This document shows positions 18,653 through 27,889 of a stretch of 64,000 nt of DNA, piece after piece. The DNA lies in the NCBI RefSeq assembly GCF_001190925.1, contig NZ_CP011072.1, positions 4,030,001 through 4,094,000 on the forward strand, given 5' to 3'. Under the pieces are notes generated by a model that saw only the letters and a program-made list of their open reading frames with translations, made no database searches and was not told where the DNA came from. The translations under genes were made by a program, and so were the position numbers. The DNA is from Azoarcus sp. CIB (lineage in GTDB: Bacteria > Pseudomonadota > Gammaproteobacteria > Burkholderiales > Rhodocyclaceae). Numbering within the stretch: position 1 is the first letter of the stretch; every line of letters starts with the position of its first letter.

Positions 18653-19510
18653 GTGATTTCGCCAATATTGTTTGTCACCCCGGTCGCATACTTCGCGCTC
18701 GTCTGCATCGGACTGGCGCTCATCCTCTATCCGGCGCGGCGACGCACGGTTCTCACGGGTGGTGCGGCACGCACTCATGCGGTCGCCGCCGCGCTGCGCG
18801 GCATGTTCCGCGACGCCACGAGGCGCGTATCGGCAAGCTTTCGCCTTGTGCGGGGCCACGGCGCCGAGATTTCCACCCGGCTGATCGAAAACCGCCCGGT
18901 GGCAATTTCCGCCATCGCGCTCGTCGTCCTTCCACCCTTGGTCGTGCTTGCGCTGTCGCAACGCGCGATCTTCGAGTTCGCTCCGGACAACACGCTCCCC
19001 GATCGCAAGATCGCCGCACTTCTGGCCGGAGAGCATCTCACCCCCCCTCCGCCGCTTCCGCCCGCCGTCTTTGCCACCACGGAAGTCGAAATGCTCAGAC
19101 CATCGCTCGGGTCCGCCAGCCGGGACTGGAATCTGCTCGATGACCAGTTCCGGCAACGCCTGCTCACCGTGTTCACGCTGCTCGCGGAACAGCATGACTA
19201 CCAGGCGGTACTGCTCGAAGGCTATCGCAGCCCCGAACGTCAGGCGGAACTGCTGCTGCGCGGCCCGGCCGTCACCCAGGCCGGCCCGAACATGAGCTAT
19301 CACCAGCACGGCCTCGCCGCCGATGTCGCTTTCCTGCGCGACGGCAGGCTCGTCATCTCCGAGCGCGACCCCTGGGCCATGCGTGGCTACGAACTCTACG
19401 GCGCCCTTGCCGAGGCAGCGGGCCTGACCTGGGGCGGACGCTGGAAGATGATGGACCTCGGGCACGTCGAGCTGCGCCGGCGTGAAGCCCTTCCCGACGG
19501 GCACTCCTGA
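18653..19510 (+). CDS. tagX: TagX-like M15 peptidoglycan peptidase of the T6SS
   Basis: A 285-residue membrane-anchored peptidase. Two transmembrane helices (about 5-26 and 84-104) precede a periplasmic M15/VanY-type zinc peptidase domain (about 140-285). Its motifs are EGYRSPERQAELL, the zinc-binding SYHQHGLAADVAF, and the final LGHVEL histidine. In Acinetobacter, TagX is an L,D-endopeptidase thought to open peptidoglycan for T6SS assembly. The GTG at 18653 is the only start giving the full first helix, though its ribosome site is weak. Neighbours are the PAAR and tssM genes, which support the T6SS role. Exact bond specificity is not readable. Confidence 0.82.
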   Translation: MISPILFVTPVAYFALVCIGLALILYPARRRTVLTGGAARTHAVAAALRGMFRDATRRVSASFRLVRGHGAEISTRLIENRPVAISAIALVVLPPLVVLALSQRAIFEFAPDNTLPDRKIAALLAGEHLTPPPPLPPAVFATTEVEMLRPSLGSASRDWNLLDDQFRQRLLTVFTLLAEQHDYQAVLLEGYRSPERQAELLLRGPAVTQAGPNMSYHQHGLAADVAFLRDGRLVISERDPWAMRGYELYGALAEAAGLTWGGRWKMMDLGHVELRRREALPDGHS

Positions 19511-19561: not shown

Positions 19562-19828
19562 ATGGCACGTCCGTTCATCGTCATCGGCGACCGGACCGAT
19601 CACGGCGGCACTGTGATCGGCGCTTCGCTCAGCAGCGACTGCAATGGCAAAGGCATCGCACGCGTCGGGGATCAGGTGACCTGCCCCCGGAAAGGGCACG
19701 GCCGCGTGACGGTCATTGCGACGGGAGATCCGACTACCCTCATCGACGGACGTCCGGCCGCGCGCCATGGCGACAAGACGGCCTGCGGCGCGATCCTGAT
19801 CGCCTCGCAGGCGCTCACCGTCGATTGA
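19562..19828 (+). CDS. PAAR-domain T6SS spike-tip protein
   Basis: An 88-residue protein consisting of one PAAR domain. PAAR proteins cap the VgrG spike, sharpen it and can carry effectors. The repeat pattern is visible as GDRTDHGGTVI, ARVGDQVTCP, GHGRVTVIATG and AARHGDKTACGA, with the Cys and His residues expected for the single metal site. There is no C-terminal effector extension, so it is a bare tip. GAGG lies ten bases before the ATG. The next gene overlaps or abuts its stop. No vgrG gene is seen in the window. Confidence 0.9.
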   Translation: MARPFIVIGDRTDHGGTVIGASLSSDCNGKGIARVGDQVTCPRKGHGRVTVIATGDPTTLIDGRPAARHGDKTACGAILIASQALTVD

Positions 19829-19845: not shown

Positions 19846-21276
19846 ATGTTCGCCTTCGCAATGAGGCCCATCGTTCTCGTCGTTCTTGCTACAACACTGG
19901 TCTGGACGCTCGTCCTCGGCTGGTGGCGGGCCGCGGGATATGAACCCAGCACGATCGACGTCGCCACGCATCTGGTCCTCTTGCCGGCAACACTTCTTGC
20001 CGGCTTCTGGCTCCTGCGAACCTTCATCGAACACCTTCGCCTGCCGCCCCACACGGCCGCGAACGCGCCCGCTCCCCAGGAAACGGCAACGCCCGGCCTC
20101 CCGGCGTCTGCAGCGTCCAGTCCGACACGCCGCCCGGATACGTTCCTGATCGCCTTCGCACTGCAGTGCGCGCACGGGACGGATCCGGCGCAAGTGCTCG
20201 ATGCAAGCAGGGAAGGATGCACGCCCCCGCTCGACGACCACCTCCGCGACACGCACGGCTTTCCCGTGTTCGCCGCGCGCGTTGCCGATCTGTCGCCGGA
20301 GGAGCTCGACGAAGCACTGAACGACCATTCCGTCGACATGCGCCGGACGGACCGTGAAGAGGACGGGCGTGCGCTGGCGATGCTGCACACGACACTCCCC
20401 CGTGCCCTTGACGAAATCGCGGAATCCATCGCGCTCGATCCTGCGGCGATCCGGGACGTGTTCTGGCTTTCGGACCGGGACTGGCCGGACGAACACCAAG
20501 CCGGCCTCGTCGCCTGGCTGCGGCGCGAACACCTCGCTCCCCGCGGAATCGCCCCGGCAGAGGTTCGATTTCGCCACTTGCAGGACGACGCTCATGCCTT
20601 CGAGACCATCGACGAGTTGATCGCAAACCTGAACCGTCAGGAGTCCCCGGCAATCGTGCTCGTAATGGGCGCCGTGTCGCATGTTGGCGAGCGGACGATC
20701 GCGACCTGGGAGGCGGGATCGCAGCTGTTCACTGCGAACACGCAGGACGGCCGGATTCCCGGCGAGGCAGCCGCAGTGCTGTTGCTCGCGAATCCTGCCG
20801 GAGCCGCCTTTGTCGGGCGCCTGCCATCTCCCCGTCTATCGCATGCTGCCTCGGCCAGAAGCGCGCCCCCCGGGGCTGCCGGAGCGAAAACCGACGGATC
20901 TCTCCTGGGAAGCCTGATCGACGCCATCCTGGCCGATACGCGCCTCGACGCGGCACACATCGCGAATGTGCTTGCCGACGCCGACCATCGCGCCCCGGTC
21001 GCGAAGGAGCTCCTTCGGACGCTCTCGGAACGTTTCCCCGCGCTCGAACCACTGTCGGACACACTCAGCCTCGGAACCGCGACAGGCTTTGCCTCGCCTA
21101 TCGGCGGACTCGTCACGCTGCTGTGCGCCGCCGAAGCCGCCAGCGCGGCCGACGGCGTCGCTCTGTGCCTGACCTGCCAATCCCCCCATGCCCGCGCGGC
21201 CATGATCGTCGACGCCAGTCCGCTGGCTTCCATGTCACCCCCGCAAACGCCAGTCTCCGCTCTTGACGCCACCTGA
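19846..21276 (+). CDS. Membrane-anchored T6SS-linked protein with thiolase-fold-like C-terminus
   Basis: No named family recognised with certainty. The 476-residue protein has two N-terminal transmembrane helices (about 5-25 and 38-60), a Pro/Ala linker, and a soluble part. The soluble part carries phrases typical of ketoacyl-synthase-like proteins: DGRIPGEAAAVLLLANP near residue 300, a DADHR-containing stretch near 370, and SLGTATGFASPIGGL near 415. The catalytic Cys/His set of a true condensing enzyme is not apparent. Proteins annotated as ketoacyl synthase occur in PAAR/VgrG operons, so an adaptor role is possible. ATG at 19846 is chosen; a TTG at 19825 overlapping the PAAR stop is the alternative. 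Confidence 0.62.
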   Translation: MFAFAMRPIVLVVLATTLVWTLVLGWWRAAGYEPSTIDVATHLVLLPATLLAGFWLLRTFIEHLRLPPHTAANAPAPQETATPGLPASAASSPTRRPDTFLIAFALQCAHGTDPAQVLDASREGCTPPLDDHLRDTHGFPVFAARVADLSPEELDEALNDHSVDMRRTDREEDGRALAMLHTTLPRALDEIAESIALDPAAIRDVFWLSDRDWPDEHQAGLVAWLRREHLAPRGIAPAEVRFRHLQDDAHAFETIDELIANLNRQESPAIVLVMGAVSHVGERTIATWEAGSQLFTANTQDGRIPGEAAAVLLLANPAGAAFVGRLPSPRLSHAASARSAPPGAAGAKTDGSLLGSLIDAILADTRLDAAHIANVLADADHRAPVAKELLRTLSERFPALEPLSDTLSLGTATGFASPIGGLVTLLCAAEAASAADGVALCLTCQSPHARAAMIVDASPLASMSPPQTPVSALDAT

Positions 21277-21279
21277 CCG

Positions 21280-24200
21280 ATGTATTCAATCCGCACCTTT
21301 CTGACCGACTCGCGCACGCTCTCCTTTATCGGCGTCCTGGCCCTTGCGGCCTTCTTCATGCTGGGCGCCGAAACGCTGGAACTCGCATTGACATGGGCAG
21401 CGATCGCCTCGTGCGCCCTCCTCGCAATCTGGATCGCGGTGTGGGCGTGGCGGCGACGGCGGGCCGGTCTCGCCGCTTCCGCTCTCGAACGGATGCTCGA
21501 CCCGCGTACAGGCGATGGCGAAGGCCGGACGAAGGGAGAAATCGAAACCCTGCGCCAGCGCATGCAGGAAGCCATCCGCACGATCAAGACGTCGAAGCTC
21601 GGGCTGGTCTCCGGACGCGCCGCGCTGTATGAGCTGCCGTGGTACATCACGATCGGCAACCCGGCGGCAGGCAAGAGCACGGCCGTCGTCAATTCGGGCC
21701 TCACTTTCCCCCTCGGTGATGCGGCCGGCAGCGTCGTGCAGGGGCTCGGCGGGACGCGCAACTGCGACTGGTTCTTCACGACGGAAGGAATCCTCCTCGA
21801 CACGGCCGGCCGCTACTCCGTCCATGAAGAAGACCGCGAGGAATGGCTGGGCTTTCTCGACCTGTTGAGAAGAAATCGTCCGCTCGCGCCGATCAACGGG
21901 ATCATCGTCACGGCGAGCATCGGCGAGCTGCTCCGCAATCCCCCCGGCGTCGCAATTGCGCTCGCCAAGAACCTGCGACAGCGGGTTCAGGAACTCACCG
22001 AACGTCTGGAAGTGTTCGCGCCGATCTACGTGATGTTCTCGAAGGCCGATCTCATCGCGGGGTTCAACGAATTCTTTCAGGACGTGGACTGGAACGAGCG
22101 CGACCGCGTGTGGGGCGCCACGTTGCCCTACGAGACCAACGGAAGCAATGACGCCATAGGGCTGTTCGACCGCTACTTCGATGAACTGTACGAAGGGCTG
22201 CGCGAAATGAGCGTAGCGCAGATGTCGATTGCCCGCGGCGAGCGCATGGCGCCGGGGCTGCTCACCTTCCCGCTCGAGTTCGCGGCGATCAAGCCGGTCT
22301 TGCGATCCTTCATCGCCACGCTGTTCGAGGAAAACCCGTTCCAGTTCAAACCGATCTTCCGCGGCTTCTACATCACCTCGGCAATCCAGAGCGGAGAGAC
22401 GCCCAGCAGCTCCAGCGAGCGAGTGGAAAAGCGCTTCGGGCTTTCCGGCGACGGTCCGGCCGCAGCCCGGATCGCCTCGAACAACGGCTTCTTCCTGAAG
22501 GACCTCTTCTCCAAGGTGATCTTCGCCGACCGTAACCTGGTACGGCACTATGCCAGCAGGAAAAAGAAACGCCTGCATCACGCCACCTCGCTGGCCGCGG
22601 CTGCACTGCTGGGCCTTTCGCTGGCCGGCTGGAGCTGGTCATACGCAAACAATCGCAGCCTCGTCGAAAATGTCCGAGCCGACCTCGACCGGGCTGTCCG
22701 CCTTCAGGAAGATCGCATCGATCTGCAGTCACGGCTCGAAGCGCTCGAACTCCTTCAGGATCGCATTGCGCAACTGGAGCGTTTCGAAACGGAGCCCTCC
22801 CGGTCGCTCCGGCTCGGTCTCTTCCAGGGCAAGGAGGTGAAATCCAGATTGCTCGAAGAGTACTACCGGGGTATCACCGAAATCATGCTCCGTCCGGTCA
22901 GCGAAAGCATCGAAGGCTTCCTTGCCGCAGTCAATCGCAACTCGGGCCGTCTGCGACAGACCGACAGTGCCGACCGGGGGACATCCGGCAACACATCTCC
23001 GAACGGGCAGCCGTACAAGGAAGCCACACCGACCAACGTCGAGGACGCCTACAACGCCCTGAAAACCTATCTGATGCTGGGCGACAAGTCACACACCGAG
23101 GTCGGCCATCTCTCCGATCAGCTAAGCCGCTACTGGCGCACCTGGCTGGACGCCAATCGCGGTTCCATGCCGCGGGAACAGATGATGCGCAGCGCAGAGC
23201 GGATCATCAGTTTCCACCTACGGCACGCGAACGATCCCGGCTGGCCGACGATCGCGGGCAAGCTGTCCGTGATCGACGAAACGCGCGGAACGCTGCGCCA
23301 TGTGGTGCGCGGCATGCCCGCAATCGAACGCGTCTATGGGGACATCAAGGCGCGAGCGGCCACCCGATTCCCCCCGGTGACGGTAGCAAACCTCGCGGGC
23401 GCGGATGACACGGGTCTTGTCAGCGGCAGTCACGTGATATCCGGTGCATTTACCGCCGAAGCTTGGCGGAGCTATGTCGAAGTCGCCATCAAGAATGCGG
23501 CCACGGGAGAACTCCACAGTACGGATTGGGTCCTCGACACCAGCGCTAAGGACGACCTGTCCCTCGCCGGCAGCCCGGAGCAGATCCAGAAGACGCTCGT
23601 GGCGATGTACAAGAAGGAATACGTCCAGGAGTGGCAGAAGTTCGTCACCGGGATCGGCGTCAGCGGTTTCGACGGTTTCCCTGCCGCGGTGGCCGCAATG
23701 AATCGACTCGGCGACATAACCGCCTCCCCCTTGGGGAAACTGCTGCGCACCGTGCATGAGCAGACCGCTTGGGACAATCCGGGCGTAAGCCATGCCGTAG
23801 CCGCGCGCGCGCAGAAAGGCTTCATCGAGTGGTTCAAGCAGTCGATTCTGCGGATGTCGCCCGCTCCGGTCACTCTGGAAGTGTCCTCGACCTCGGCGAC
23901 GATCGCCAGCCCGATGGGAGCCATCGGCCAGGAATTCGTCGGCGTCGGTCGTCTGCTCGCGCGGCGGGACAACGGGGAATCGATCCTGGACCTCTACCTG
24001 CGCCGCCTCTCCGGACTGCGGACCCGTCTCAATCTCCTCGCCAACCAGGGTGACCCGGGCCCGGGCGCGGTCAAGCTGATGAGCGAAACGATCGAAGGCG
24101 GCAATTCGGAGCTCGCAGACACGCTGCGGTTCGTGGACGAGCAGATGCTGACGGGCATGCCCGACAACCAGCGCGAGGTGCTCCGCCCGCTGCTCGTGCG

Positions 24201-25050
24201 GCCCCTGCTGCAGACCTTCGCGGCCCTGATCGGCCCGGCCGAGCGGGAACTCGACAAGAGCTGGATTGCGAACGTGTATGAGCCGTTCGGGCGGCAGCTT
24301 GCCGGAAAATACCCGTTCGATGCCAAGTCGGGCATAGAAGCAACACCGGCCGAGATCGCGCAGATCTTTGGTCCGGAGGGCGCAATTTCGAAGTACGCGG
24401 CGACAAGCATCGGGCCGCTGATGGTGCGGCGCGGCGACTATATCGAACCAAGGACCTGGGGCGATCTCGGCATCCGCCTGCGTCCCGATTTCCTCGCCGC
24501 GTTCCCGGGCTGGGTCGCGCCGCTGGACGGCAGCAGCGCCACACAAGCCGCGGCGGTAGCGCAAACGAGCTTCAGAGTACTGCCGCTGCCGTCGCCGGGC
24601 ACGACCGAATACACGATTGAGATCGACGGACAAAGACTGCGCTACCGCAACGGGGCCGCCCAGTGGGCAACCTTCGTGTGGCCGAATCCGGCGGGAACCC
24701 CAGGCGCGCGAGTCATCGCAACGACCTTCGAAGGACAGGAACTCGAGGTCGCGAATTTCAGCGGGCGCTTCGGACTCGAAAAGCTGATCAACTCCGCCAC
24801 CCAAACCCGCAATGCCGACGGCTCCTTCAACCTCGCCTGGCAAGCGGGCGAAGTCTCGGTTCCGGTCACACTCAAGATCGTAAGCAGCCCGGACATGCAG
24901 ACGGGCAAGAGCGCCAGCGCCAAGGGCAGCCGCAATGCTCCCCTCCCCTCCAGCGTGGCCGGCGAGGCAGTAAAGGCACGCGCCGACGCCGAAACCGGAA
25001 GCCCGGCGACGCTCGCAGCCACGAATCAGGAACGGGGGAACCGGCCATGA
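21280..25050 (+). CDS. tssM: T6SS membrane complex protein TssM (IcmF)
   Basis: A 1256-residue inner membrane protein that, with TssJ and TssL, forms the T6SS trans-envelope complex. Two transmembrane helices (about 12-55) lead to a cytoplasmic NTPase-like domain with an intact Walker A motif GNPAAGKST near residue 126 and DTAGRY near 172. A third helix lies near 437-455 and is followed by the large periplasmic IcmF-related and C-terminal domains. Length fits the family. It begins three bases after the preceding gene and overlaps tagF by the ATGA junction. TssL and TssJ genes are not seen nearby. Confidence 0.96.
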   Translation: MYSIRTFLTDSRTLSFIGVLALAAFFMLGAETLELALTWAAIASCALLAIWIAVWAWRRRRAGLAASALERMLDPRTGDGEGRTKGEIETLRQRMQEAIRTIKTSKLGLVSGRAALYELPWYITIGNPAAGKSTAVVNSGLTFPLGDAAGSVVQGLGGTRNCDWFFTTEGILLDTAGRYSVHEEDREEWLGFLDLLRRNRPLAPINGIIVTASIGELLRNPPGVAIALAKNLRQRVQELTERLEVFAPIYVMFSKADLIAGFNEFFQDVDWNERDRVWGATLPYETNGSNDAIGLFDRYFDELYEGLREMSVAQMSIARGERMAPGLLTFPLEFAAIKPVLRSFIATLFEENPFQFKPIFRGFYITSAIQSGETPSSSSERVEKRFGLSGDGPAAARIASNNGFFLKDLFSKVIFADRNLVRHYASRKKKRLHHATSLAAAALLGLSLAGWSWSYANNRSLVENVRADLDRAVRLQEDRIDLQSRLEALELLQDRIAQLERFETEPSRSLRLGLFQGKEVKSRLLEEYYRGITEIMLRPVSESIEGFLAAVNRNSGRLRQTDSADRGTSGNTSPNGQPYKEATPTNVEDAYNALKTYLMLGDKSHTEVGHLSDQLSRYWRTWLDANRGSMPREQMMRSAERIISFHLRHANDPGWPTIAGKLSVIDETRGTLRHVVRGMPAIERVYGDIKARAATRFPPVTVANLAGADDTGLVSGSHVISGAFTAEAWRSYVEVAIKNAATGELHSTDWVLDTSAKDDLSLAGSPEQIQKTLVAMYKKEYVQEWQKFVTGIGVSGFDGFPAAVAAMNRLGDITASPLGKLLRTVHEQTAWDNPGVSHAVAARAQKGFIEWFKQSILRMSPAPVTLEVSSTSATIASPMGAIGQEFVGVGRLLARRDNGESILDLYLRRLSGLRTRLNLLANQGDPGPGAVKLMSETIEGGNSELADTLRFVDEQMLTGMPDNQREVLRPLLVRPLLQTFAALIGPAERELDKSWIANVYEPFGRQLAGKYPFDAKSGIEATPAEIAQIFGPEGAISKYAATSIGPLMVRRGDYIEPRTWGDLGIRLRPDFLAAFPGWVAPLDGSSATQAAAVAQTSFRVLPLPSPGTTEYTIEIDGQRLRYRNGAAQWATFVWPNPAGTPGARVIATTFEGQELEVANFSGRFGLEKLINSATQTRNADGSFNLAWQAGEVSVPVTLKIVSSPDMQTGKSASAKGSRNAPLPSSVAGEAVKARADAETGSPATLAATNQERGNRP

Positions 25051-26030
25051 GGGGCCCCACCATTCACGCCACCGGCTATTTCGGCAAGCTGCCCGCGCGC
25101 GGCGATTTTGTGAAGGGAGGCGGATCGGCGCAACTGATCGCGATGCTCGACCGCTGGATATCGGAAAGCATGAACCTGCTGTCGACCGATCCCCGTTGGC
25201 GCATTCCGTACGACAGCATGAGCCCAGTCCACTTCGCCTTTGTCGGCCCGCGCAGCCGCCTCTCGGTCGTCGGCCATCTCCAGCCGAGCCACGACGCATC
25301 CTCGCGACGCTTTCCCTTCCTCGTCGCATCGACCATCGAGTCGGAGGCCGGGCATGCCCACCCCGGGCCGCTGGCCCTGTCGTCCCTTTGGGAAAAGTTC
25401 GGGCACCTCGTCGGTCTTGCCCGAACCGCCGACGAACCGGCCTCCATGCTGCACGCGCTCGCGCGCATCGACTGCGCACAGGAACTCGCACACATGGCAC
25501 AACCGTCCGGCGCCGACGCGGTGCCCGATTCAATCACCATTGCGGACATCGACCGCCTGCTCGAGCACGATGGCCACGCCGGAAACGCGCGCCGCACCAT
25601 CTTGTCCCTCGGTGTGCTGCTGCGACCGCTGCTCGGCAGCAACAGACCGACGATCGAACGCGGCCTGCGCTTGCCCTTGCCGAGCGACGTCGGGCTGCGG
25701 GACGCGCTGGCACAAGTCTGGCTGAACGTCATCAGCGGTTTCCTTAGGAATACCCCTTGCGAACTCCAGCTGCTGCAGGCGTCGGTTGCCGGACGCAATA
25801 CGCTCGTTGTCGGATTCAACGGCGCGTCGCCACTGCCGCTCGTCAGCCTGATCTCGCCGGGGAGTGCGCCCGACGCCGTCGTGAGCCTCGAAGCCCCCGA
25901 ATGGATCGACACGCACCCCGACCTCGTCGGCGACTACGGAATCGCCAAGCTGTCGAGTTATCTCGCGCAGCCGGGGACGACCCTCGCCACAGCGCTCGCC
26001 ACCTTCAGGGAAGTATTTTTCGGAGAATGA
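25047..26030 (+). CDS. tagF: T6SS-associated protein TagF
   Basis: A 327-residue protein with the TagF (DUF2094) hallmark GYFGKLPARGDFVKGG at residues 9-24. TagF acts as a post-translational negative regulator of T6SS firing in Pseudomonas, binding Fha1. The ATG at 25047 overlaps the tssM stop (ATGA), and the gene's stop overlaps the next start in the same way, so all three genes are translationally coupled. A longer in-frame reading upstream runs inside tssM and is rejected. No fused PppA phosphatase domain is present, which some TagF proteins carry. Confidence 0.92.
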   Translation: MRGPTIHATGYFGKLPARGDFVKGGGSAQLIAMLDRWISESMNLLSTDPRWRIPYDSMSPVHFAFVGPRSRLSVVGHLQPSHDASSRRFPFLVASTIESEAGHAHPGPLALSSLWEKFGHLVGLARTADEPASMLHALARIDCAQELAHMAQPSGADAVPDSITIADIDRLLEHDGHAGNARRTILSLGVLLRPLLGSNRPTIERGLRLPLPSDVGLRDALAQVWLNVISGFLRNTPCELQLLQASVAGRNTLVVGFNGASPLPLVSLISPGSAPDAVVSLEAPEWIDTHPDLVGDYGIAKLSSYLAQPGTTLATALATFREVFFGE

Positions 26031-26809
26031 TCTTGAAACTCACTTCCGCACTCGCGGCGGGGCTGCTCTATGCTGCTGCAGGCATGGGCGCACAGCCCCA
26101 GCAAGCCTCTGCGCCGGACGGCATGGTGTACGTCACCGGAACGGTCCCCGACGAAAGCGCGCGCGTAGCCATCATTTCCCGCCTGCGCGACCTCTATGGG
26201 GCCGACAAGGTCGTCGACCGCCTCGATTCGGGGGGCGTCGTCGCCCCACCCGACTGGACCGGCCACGTTGTGAAGACGCTCGGCAACGGCATCCGCAACG
26301 TGCGCCAGGGGCAGCTCGAGGTTAACGGAACCCAGGTCACGATCAGCGGCAATGTCACCAACGAAGCCCGCCGGCAGCAAGTGGCCAGCGAAATTGCAAC
26401 TGCGCTCAACCCGACCTACACCGTGAATAACGGTCTGCGTGTACCTGCCGGCTCCCAAGCGCTGCTCGATCAGACGCTCGCGGATCGTGTGGTCGAGTTC
26501 GAAAGCGGATCCGCGATCCTGACGCCAACCGGCATTTCCATTCTTGACGAGATGGCGGCAGCCATTGCCAGGCTCGATCGCCCGCGCGTCGACATCATCG
26601 GGCATACGGACTCCACCGGAAACCGGATGGCCAACGTCGCACTGAGCCTCGCCCGAGCCGACGCGGTCAAGACCTATCTTGCCGGCAAGGGTATCCCGGC
26701 GGCAAGTCTGAGCGCGCTGGGTGCGGGACCGGACCGGCCGGTGACGCCGAACGACACGCCGGAAGGCCGCGCGCGCAATCGCCGAATAGAATTCCGGCTC
26801 GCCGAGTGA
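26027..26809 (+). CDS. Exported BON-like / OmpA-domain protein of the T6SS cluster
   Basis: A 260-residue envelope protein. It has a signal peptide (about 1-22), BON-like repeats (about 30-140; the phrases VTGTVPDESARVAIISRLRDLYG and VTISGNVTNEARRQQVASEI are typical), and a C-terminal OmpA peptidoglycan-binding domain with GHTDSTGNRMANVALSLARA and NRRIEFRL. It overlaps tagF by four bases, which ties it to the T6SS. The OmpA domain may anchor the secretion complex to the cell wall, as TagL does when TssL lacks such a domain. The N-terminal part shows no membrane helix beyond the signal. Confidence 0.84.
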   Translation: MILKLTSALAAGLLYAAAGMGAQPQQASAPDGMVYVTGTVPDESARVAIISRLRDLYGADKVVDRLDSGGVVAPPDWTGHVVKTLGNGIRNVRQGQLEVNGTQVTISGNVTNEARRQQVASEIATALNPTYTVNNGLRVPAGSQALLDQTLADRVVEFESGSAILTPTGISILDEMAAAIARLDRPRVDIIGHTDSTGNRMANVALSLARADAVKTYLAGKGIPAASLSALGAGPDRPVTPNDTPEGRARNRRIEFRLAE

Positions 26810-26824: not shown

Positions 26825-27889
26825 TCAGCGTCCCGGCGGGGGCTGGGTCACGAGTCCGAGCAATTCCTCGACGTGGGAGAGCGCCCCGTCGTCCCTGACC
26901 ACAGTCCGCAGCCACTCGTGCAGCGACATCTCGCCCCAGCGTGCGGCCTTGTCGGCGAGATAGGCCACCGGGCTGTGGGGCTCGGTGCGCCGGAAGAAAT
27001 CCGCCACCTCACGTAGCTGCGCGATCGCATCGGCCCGCGTTGCGATCGACCCGGGGCTTGCTCCGCCCGGCGCGCGCTCGCCTCCTGCAGTCCGCCCGCT
27101 TTCCCCGGGTGAAACCGCGCGCAACTGCGAGGTCGGCGCAGGCACATCGCCACCGAAACGCCGCAAGGTGTCGCGCACCTCTATCAGGGCCTGGCGCGCG
27201 TCTTCGAAACCCGGGCCGTCCAGACCGAGCCTGGCATCCACGACCCGTTCGAGTTCGGCCAGTGCCAGGCGTGCTGCTTCCGCCTCCGCGGCAATACGGG
27301 CGAAAAAGTCGCGGGGCGTGTCCCGGCGTGCCGCCTCGAACTGGTCGAGCGTCACCGGCGCCGCACGCATGAGGAATTCCGCGTCCTGCGGATTACGCTC
27401 CAGGCTGGCCGCCAGATTGCGTGCGGATTCCAGGTCTGCCGTCGAGAAGCGCCCACGCGACGAATCGGTCACGGGCATATCGCGAATGATGCGGCGGGAC
27501 TGGGTCACTAGCCAGTCGAGATTGCCGGCACGCATCTCCTGGTCGCCATCGTCGGGAAGCGGATGGATCTCGTCCCAATACGACTCGCACAGTCCGGCCA
27601 CCAGCCGATAGCCGTCGGCAAGGCCGGAAAATCCGCGAGTCCTCGCCACGGCTTCGGTCAACCAGACGGCGACACGGACGTCCTTCGCTCGGGACGCCAA
27701 CGCATCCTCGCACAGACGCGCGACTCGCGCCCAGTCCGCCTCCTTCAGCGGTCTCACCCATTCGCCCTGACTCACCGAAGGGTCGTCGAAGCGGCGCGCC
27801 TCCTGGATCTCGTCGAAAAGCGCGGAAAAGGTGAGATCCTCGCCGCAGCGATTGCCGGCTAGCGGTCGAAGCAGTGCATCCAAATCCAT
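26825..27889 (-). CDS. tssA: T6SS baseplate/sheath assembly protein TssA
   Basis: A 354-residue protein with an N-terminal ImpA_N domain: GEDLTFSALFDEIQEARRFDDPS is followed by the W-rich ADWARVARLCEDAL. TssA proteins prime or cap the growing tail. The C-terminus EPHSPVAYLADKAARWGEMSLHEWLRTVV matches the short-type TssA tail. The gene is convergent with the OmpA-domain gene across only 15 bases, with a small GCCGGG/CCCGGC inverted repeat at the junction. It has its own promoter region upstream at 27890-27963 and is the only core T6SS gene besides tssM in the window. Confidence 0.9.
   Translation of the reverse strand: MDLDALLRPLAGNRCGEDLTFSALFDEIQEARRFDDPSVSQGEWVRPLKEADWARVARLCEDALASRAKDVRVAVWLTEAVARTRGFSGLADGYRLVAGLCESYWDEIHPLPDDGDQEMRAGNLDWLVTQSRRIIRDMPVTDSSRGRFSTADLESARNLAASLERNPQDAEFLMRAAPVTLDQFEAARRDTPRDFFARIAAEAEAARLALAELERVVDARLGLDGPGFEDARQALIEVRDTLRRFGGDVPAPTSQLRAVSPGESGRTAGGERAPGGASPGSIATRADAIAQLREVADFFRRTEPHSPVAYLADKAARWGEMSLHEWLRTVVRDDGALSHVEELLGLVTQPPPGR

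What the first reader, a model, noticed from the sequence alone, without database searches (positions are those of the whole stretch)
19846..21276. T6SS membrane protein with ketoacyl-synthase-like motifs but no obvious catalytic set
Two N-terminal membrane helices lead to a soluble part whose phrases PGEAAAVLLLA and GTATGFASPIGG resemble thiolase-fold enzymes. The usual catalytic Cys and His pattern is not seen. A membrane-held, probably inactive thiolase fold between the PAAR and TssM genes would be a new type of T6SS adaptor. Related ketoacyl-synthase-like proteins are known to me from PAAR/VgrG operons, without a membrane anchor.
Basis: inference. Interest (0 to 1): 0.72.

Follow-up and report, generated by a model that had tools for sequence, protein, structure and literature searches.

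The report
Membrane-anchored dead ketosynthase of T6SS (TagZ/TsmK)
The gene makes a membrane-anchored, catalytically dead relative of fatty-acid-building enzymes that belongs to a bacterial toxin-injection machine; the protein family is already known (TagZ, AsaB, TsmK), but the data widen its range, undercut a published idea about its role and link it to a family of predicted spike-tip chaperones.

Summary
Window 19846-21276 (+) encodes 476 aa with two N-terminal membrane helices and a degenerate ketoacyl-synthase (KS) domain, between paar and tssM. All three catalytic positions are lost.

It is not a new protein type. It is homologous to A. baumannii AsaB/TsmK ('pseudo-ketoacyl synthase', 2023) and corresponds to TagZ (2019, described as a paar-tagZ pair). 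My library search found no paper connecting those two names with TvpD/PRK06147, the soluble predicted PAAR co-chaperone (2026).

New here: (1) the soluble domain matches the soluble PRK06147/TvpD-like pseudo-KS family end to end (hhalign 4.5e-23), and that family matches FabF (2.2e-14). (2) TsmK is not Acinetobacter-specific, and TssJ is present in 16 of 16 genomes with it, so it is not generally a TssJ substitute. (3) It looks ancestral to this T6SS subtype with about three losses, and paar is missing from the slot in every loss.

Best explanation: an inactive scaffold stabilising the TssM-TssL membrane complex (shown in A. baumannii by others; transferred by homology), probably also tethering the PAAR spike tip there (inferred). 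AlphaFold models were poor, so the fold rests mainly on profile evidence. Interest moderate.

The parts
18653..19510 (+). tagX: membrane-anchored peptidoglycan peptidase of the T6SS (Pfam Peptidase_M15_4)
   Evidence: PF13539 1.6e-10; homologous to TagX ORFs of all related loci
19562..19828 (+). paar: small PAAR spike-tip protein, 88 aa, without an effector domain; 17 bp upstream of the gene in question
   Evidence: PF05488 5e-26; protein identical in Aromatoleum tolulyticum while dS = 0.41
19846..21276 (+). tagZ/tsmK (asaB homologue): 476 aa, two N-terminal membrane helices plus pseudo-ketoacyl-synthase domain; the feature of the finding
19846..20028 (+). N-terminal membrane hairpin of TagZ/TsmK (residues about 1-61); W20 nearly invariant, W27 and P47 invariant in the family
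   Evidence: hydropathy; conservation
20128..21225 (+). degenerate KS domain (residues about 95-460); PGE motif 305-307; former catalytic positions about D248, D378, T411
   Evidence: hhalign; residue columns
21280..25050 (+). tssM: inner-membrane pillar of the T6SS membrane complex, 1256 aa; the only TssM of this genome
25047..26030 (+). tagF homologue, about 327 aa (start approximate)
   Evidence: conserved synteny; name by homology to TagF, my knowledge
26027..26809 (+). tagN: OmpA-like, putative peptidoglycan-anchoring protein, about 260 aa (start approximate)
26825..27889 (-). tssA

Best explanation
The protein is the Aromatoleum/Azoarcus orthologue of TagZ/AsaB/TsmK, a membrane-anchored pseudo-ketoacyl synthase of the Burkholderia-type T6SS-1. 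A membrane hairpin holds an inactive KS-fold domain, by positive-inside reasoning in the cytoplasm. There it works as a protein-binding scaffold that stabilises the TssM-TssL membrane complex, with TagX. Because its domain is homologous to the TvpD/PRK06147 family of predicted PAAR co-chaperones and its gene travels with a small paar gene, it probably also holds the PAAR tip of the spike and docks it, with the baseplate, on the membrane complex. Shown here: homology to A. baumannii TsmK, loss of the catalytic residues, homology to the soluble pseudo-KS family, genomic pairing with paar and tssM, co-presence of TssJ. Shown by others in A. baumannii: binding to TssM, TssL and TagX, and need for T6SS function. 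Inferred: cytoplasmic topology in this species, PAAR binding, and docking.
For: Homology to A. baumannii AsaB/TsmK: family profile 104 bits (1.9e-32 among 38 local ORFs) and window protein alone 8e-11; hhalign 1.3e-17; the A. baumannii gene is likewise next to tssM. Same gene block tagX-paar-tsmK-tssM-tagF-tagN-tssA in almost all relatives. Soluble domain vs soluble PRK06147-like family: hhalign 4.5e-23 over 345 columns, controls reversed/shuffled 0.37/0.74; that family vs FabF 2.2e-14. The soluble relatives lie beside vgrG, DUF6484, DUF2169 or PAAR-like genes, the class II Tvp arrangement of PMC13373197. Catalytic positions are lost in the family, except that A. baumannii is reported to keep one His (PMC10564176). 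paar lies in the tagX-tsmK interval in 23 of 27 tsmK+ loci and in 0 of 12 tsmK-less tagX-tssM loci; the TssM tree suggests three tsmK losses, each without paar in the slot. Published: TsmK binds TssM, TssL and TagX and is essential in A. baumannii (PMC10564176); paar-tagZ pairing noted in PMC6612558.
Against: No binding or function was tested for this protein. AlphaFold models from a 4-sequence alignment had pLDDT 43-46, so the fold is not confirmed structurally. The direct profile match to FabF is weak (0.01). Three tsmK+ loci lack paar in the slot (L043, L045, L145), Acinetobacter keeps paar elsewhere in the cluster, and two further tsmK copies beside tssK (L044, L138) have no paar within the stretch read. 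Loss of the pair may be one deletion event and so need not show functional coupling. TvpD is proposed to act with DUF2169 proteins on DUF4150-type PAAR; the window has a PF05488 PAAR, and no DUF2169 gene was identified beside it.
Confidence: 0.72

Rival explanations
1. It is purely a membrane-complex stabiliser that makes up for a missing TssJ, as suggested for Acinetobacter.
For: In Acinetobacter TsmK co-occurs with lack of TssJ (PMC10564176). In G056 and G269 the tsmK+ tssM cluster has no tssJ nearby and the single tssJ lies by the tsmK-less cluster.
Against: TssJ is present in 16 of 16 tsmK+ genomes; 11 of these, including this one, have exactly one TssM and one TssJ, so both serve the same machine. 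The TssM GS linker seen in A. baumannii is not present in the window TssM.
Confidence: 0.07
2. It is only a PAAR adaptor/chaperone (membrane-bound TvpD) and does not bind the membrane complex.
For: Homology to the TvpD/PRK06147 family, pairing with paar, orphan tagZ-like/paar pair in G056.
Against: A. baumannii TsmK co-purifies with TssM, TssL and TagX (PMC10564176); the gene is adjacent to tssM in nearly all loci; three loci lack a nearby paar.
Confidence: 0.12
3. It is an active enzyme of lipid or acyl metabolism (acyltransferase/KS) recruited to the T6SS.
For: KS ancestry.
Against: Cys, His and His positions are all replaced (about D248, D378, T411) and no alternative set is conserved there except the Asp at 378; the operon holds only T6SS genes.
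Confidence: 0.03
4. The soluble part is periplasmic and binds peptidoglycan (proposal for the Acinetobacter homologue in PMC6838775).
For: Topology guess in PMC6838775.
Against: KS homology implies a cytosolic fold; basic residues follow the second helix (R58, R65), which favours the cytoplasm.
Confidence: 0.04

Closest known systems
TsmK/AsaB of Acinetobacter baumannii (PMC10564176)
   Same: Homologous sequence, two N-terminal helices, inactive KS-like domain, gene next to tssM in a T6SS cluster with tagX, tagF and tagN
   Different: Only 16% identity; here TssJ is present, TssM lacks the GS linker, paar is directly upstream, and the one His reported to be retained in A. baumannii is absent
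TagZ of Burkholderia/Ralstonia/Xanthomonas T6SS-1 (PMC6612558)
   Same: Same gene by description: asaB homologue, N-terminal membrane helices, paar immediately upstream, same cluster type
   Different: That paper gave no fold or function; the named TagZ sequences themselves were not fetched here
TvpD/PRK06147 (PA0098 type; PMC13373197)
   Same: Soluble domain homologous over its full length; pseudo-KS; PAAR-associated
   Different: TvpD is soluble, without membrane helices, lies in vgrG-DUF6484-DUF2169-PAAR effector operons, and is proposed to chaperone DUF4150-type PAAR domains
FabF-type ketoacyl synthases and the KS-beta/chain-length factor (1tqy_B)
   Same: Same superfamily; GEG/PGE motif; the best PDB sequence hit is a KS-beta (E 0.006), known to me as catalytically inactive
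   Different: No catalytic residues, membrane anchor, T6SS context

Membership tests
TagZ/AsaB/TsmK | Sequence homology to A. baumannii AsaB/TsmK | tested here: met
   (104 bits; hhalign 1.3e-17)
TagZ/AsaB/TsmK | Two N-terminal membrane helices before a large soluble part | tested here: met
   hydropathy; conserved in the alignment
TagZ/AsaB/TsmK | Gene in a T6SS-1 cluster next to tssM, paar immediately upstream | tested here: met
TagZ/AsaB/TsmK | KS-like domain without catalytic residues | tested here: met
   by profile and residue columns; structure models were too poor to confirm the fold
TsmK sensu PMC10564176 (Acinetobacter-specific, tied to absence of TssJ and to the TssM GS linker) | No TssJ in the genome; GS linker in TssM | tested here: not met
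   TssJ present, linker absent; I read this as too narrow a published scope rather than as non-membership of the homologous family
TagZ/AsaB/TsmK | Binds TssM, TssL and TagX; needed for T6SS | not testable with these tools
   published for A. baumannii only
TvpD/PRK06147 | Homology over the pseudo-KS domain | tested here: met
   (4.5e-23, 345 columns)
TvpD/PRK06147 | NCBIfam NF004798 curated cut-off (342 bits) | tested here: not met
   29 bits
TvpD/PRK06147 | Soluble protein in a vgrG-DUF6484-DUF2169-PAAR effector operon | tested here: not met
   membrane-anchored, neighbours are tagX, paar and tssM
Active ketoacyl synthase/thiolase | Cys-His-His catalytic set | tested here: not met
   about D248, D378, T411 at those columns

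The most novel reading that the evidence does not exclude
TagZ/TsmK is a membrane-tethered TvpD: a dead ketosynthase that grips the PAAR spike tip and, by binding TssM/TssL, couples spike loading to membrane-complex assembly. This would unite three unlinked literatures (TagZ, TsmK, TvpD) in one mechanism and explain why its loss abolishes T6SS activity.
Probability: 0.4. Interest if true: 0.66.

Novelty: new member of a known kind. Interest (0 to 1): 0.45.

Why it matters
How the PAAR-tipped spike and baseplate are brought to the membrane complex is an open question of T6SS assembly. If a membrane-bound relative of a predicted PAAR chaperone sits on TssM, that step becomes directly testable. 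The survey also shows that a component published as Acinetobacter-specific and tied to TssJ loss is present in a range of Beta- and Gammaproteobacteria that have TssJ, so that published role needs revision.

Tried and rejected
Foldseek of the second model: 46 of the top 50 hits are thiolase-superfamily enzymes by my reading of the descriptions, but no E-value is under 0.001 and TM is about 0.2, so it is only supportive. Pfam gave only a chance hit (DUF6586). Viral contigs: no relatives. L004 reads as a chance match. A 16S probe for Acinetobacter in the class sample found none; A. baumannii chromosomes filed as plasmids were used instead. The Moraxella osloensis plasmid T6SS is another type without tsmK. 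The idea that TsmK replaces TssJ was considered and rejected as a general rule. A dN/dS for tssM failed because of an indel.

Full report
What is there. The ORF at 19846-21276 (+) encodes 476 aa. It lies 17 bp after a small PAAR gene (19562-19828; PF05488) and 3 bp before tssM (21280-25050), in a block tagX-paar-[this gene]-tssM-tagF-tagN with tssA convergent. Close orthologues (81-91%) lie in Azoarcus sp. Aa7 and two Aromatoleum species, with dN/dS of 0.3-0.5, so it is a real gene under selection. The genome's T6SS is split: a second locus 420 kb away holds tssH-G-F-E-hcp-C-B and tssJ-K-L. The genome has one TssM and one TssJ, so this is one machine.

What the protein is. Two hydrophobic segments (about 6-28, 36-60) precede a soluble part. 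NCBIfam finds a significant match to NF004798 (PRK06147, '3-oxoacyl-ACP synthase'), far below its curated cut-off (29 against 342 bits); 12 of 17 relatives match too, best 7.5e-12. The family profile's best PDB hit is the actinorhodin KS-beta chain (E 0.006, over the PGE motif), known to me as a catalytically inactive ketosynthase. Profile-profile comparison gives a chain of homology: family vs soluble PRK06147-like proteins, E 4.5e-23 over 345 columns; those vs FabF, E 2.2e-14; family vs FabF directly, 0.01; reversed or shuffled controls gave 0.37-0.79. By these alignments the catalytic Cys, His and His of FabF fall on D248, D378 and T411; none of 25 family members has Cys at the first position, and the second is mostly Asp. 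The exact register at D248 is uncertain.

Known names. A. baumannii AsaB was characterised in 2023 as TsmK, 'pseudo-ketoacyl synthase': two helices, about 87% cytoplasmic, binds TssM, TssL and TagX, essential for T6SS (PMC10564176). I fetched an A. baumannii T6SS locus and found its AsaB beside tssM; it matches the family profile at 104 bits and the window protein alone at 8e-11, hhalign 1.3e-17. In 2019, asaB homologues of Ralstonia, Rubrivivax, Xanthomonas, Achromobacter and some Burkholderia were named tagZ, with paar immediately upstream (PMC6612558). The 2023 paper does not mention tagZ. In 2026, PA0098 (PRK06147) was named TvpD, a predicted co-chaperone of PAAR (PMC13373197); that paper mentions neither TagZ nor AsaB nor TsmK. 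Library searches for TsmK, TagZ and PRK06147 found no paper joining them. The soluble relatives I found sit beside vgrG, DUF6484, DUF2169 or PAAR-like genes, as in class II Tvp systems. So the finding is a new member of a known family, and the link to TvpD is new as far as the searched library shows.

Distribution. Relatives were found in 13 of 300 genomes of the order (the own genome included), at full length in three further genomes of the class sample and in seven more of another gammaproteobacterial order, nearly always with tssM adjacent. TssJ is present in all 16 tsmK+ genomes tested, and 11 of these have one TssM only. That contradicts a general role as a TssJ substitute and the claim that TsmK is Acinetobacter-specific. 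The A. baumannii TssM GS linker is missing in the window TssM. In G056 and G269, which have several T6SSs, the tsmK+ cluster lacks a tssJ of its own, so a local exception is possible.

Pairing with PAAR. paar lies in the tagX-tsmK interval in 23 of 27 tsmK+ loci and in 0 of 12 tsmK-less loci. In a maximum-likelihood tree of 39 TssM proteins the tsmK label needs four changes, read as one gain and three losses (starred branches force at least two); in the lost cases paar is absent from the slot as well. G056 also has an orphan tagZ-like gene directly followed by paar, away from any tss gene (weak homology 2e-8). Against this, three loci keep tsmK without paar in the slot, and co-loss could be one deletion.

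Mechanism. Published data make it a stabiliser of TssM-TssL. Its homology to the TvpD-like pseudo-KS group and its pairing with paar suggest that the KS domain also holds PAAR; the Tvp paper itself proposes that Tvp proteins help dock the baseplate on the membrane complex. A membrane-tethered version bound to TssM would do this directly. This last step is inference, about 40% likely.

Limits. Structure prediction failed for lack of a deep alignment that the tool would accept. Foldseek on the poor model still ranked thiolase-fold enzymes first, without significant E-values. The genome samples are unnamed and evenly drawn, so percentages are not prevalence estimates.

Noticed in passing
L139:6731-8532 (G056:C1 about 844.7-846.5 kb): Orphan pair of a distant tagZ-like membrane protein (492 aa) directly followed by a small PAAR gene, beside rsmH/mraZ-like genes and away from any tss gene.
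   Followed up: partly
L044:9906-11327 and L138:7989-9284: Second tsmK copies directly after tssK in another T6SS locus, with no tssM or paar nearby; the L138 copy lacks the stretch between the PGE motif and the C-terminal part.
   Followed up: partly
G056 and G269 (L045, L050, L105, L111): In genomes with several T6SSs the only TssJ lies by the tsmK-less cluster; the tsmK+ cluster has none of its own.
   Followed up: partly
window 19562-19828: The PAAR protein is identical between this genome and Aromatoleum tolulyticum although dS is 0.41: strict conservation next to a faster-evolving partner.
   Followed up: no
L029-L036, L129 (alignment A5): The soluble PRK06147-like relatives are themselves pseudo-enzymes: the catalytic Cys column is an invariant Gly, and the His columns are mostly Asn and Asp.
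   Followed up: partly
L130 and hits H47-H49: Three A. baumannii records of chromosome size (3.7-4.1 Mb) are filed as plasmids in the plasmid collection.
   Followed up: no
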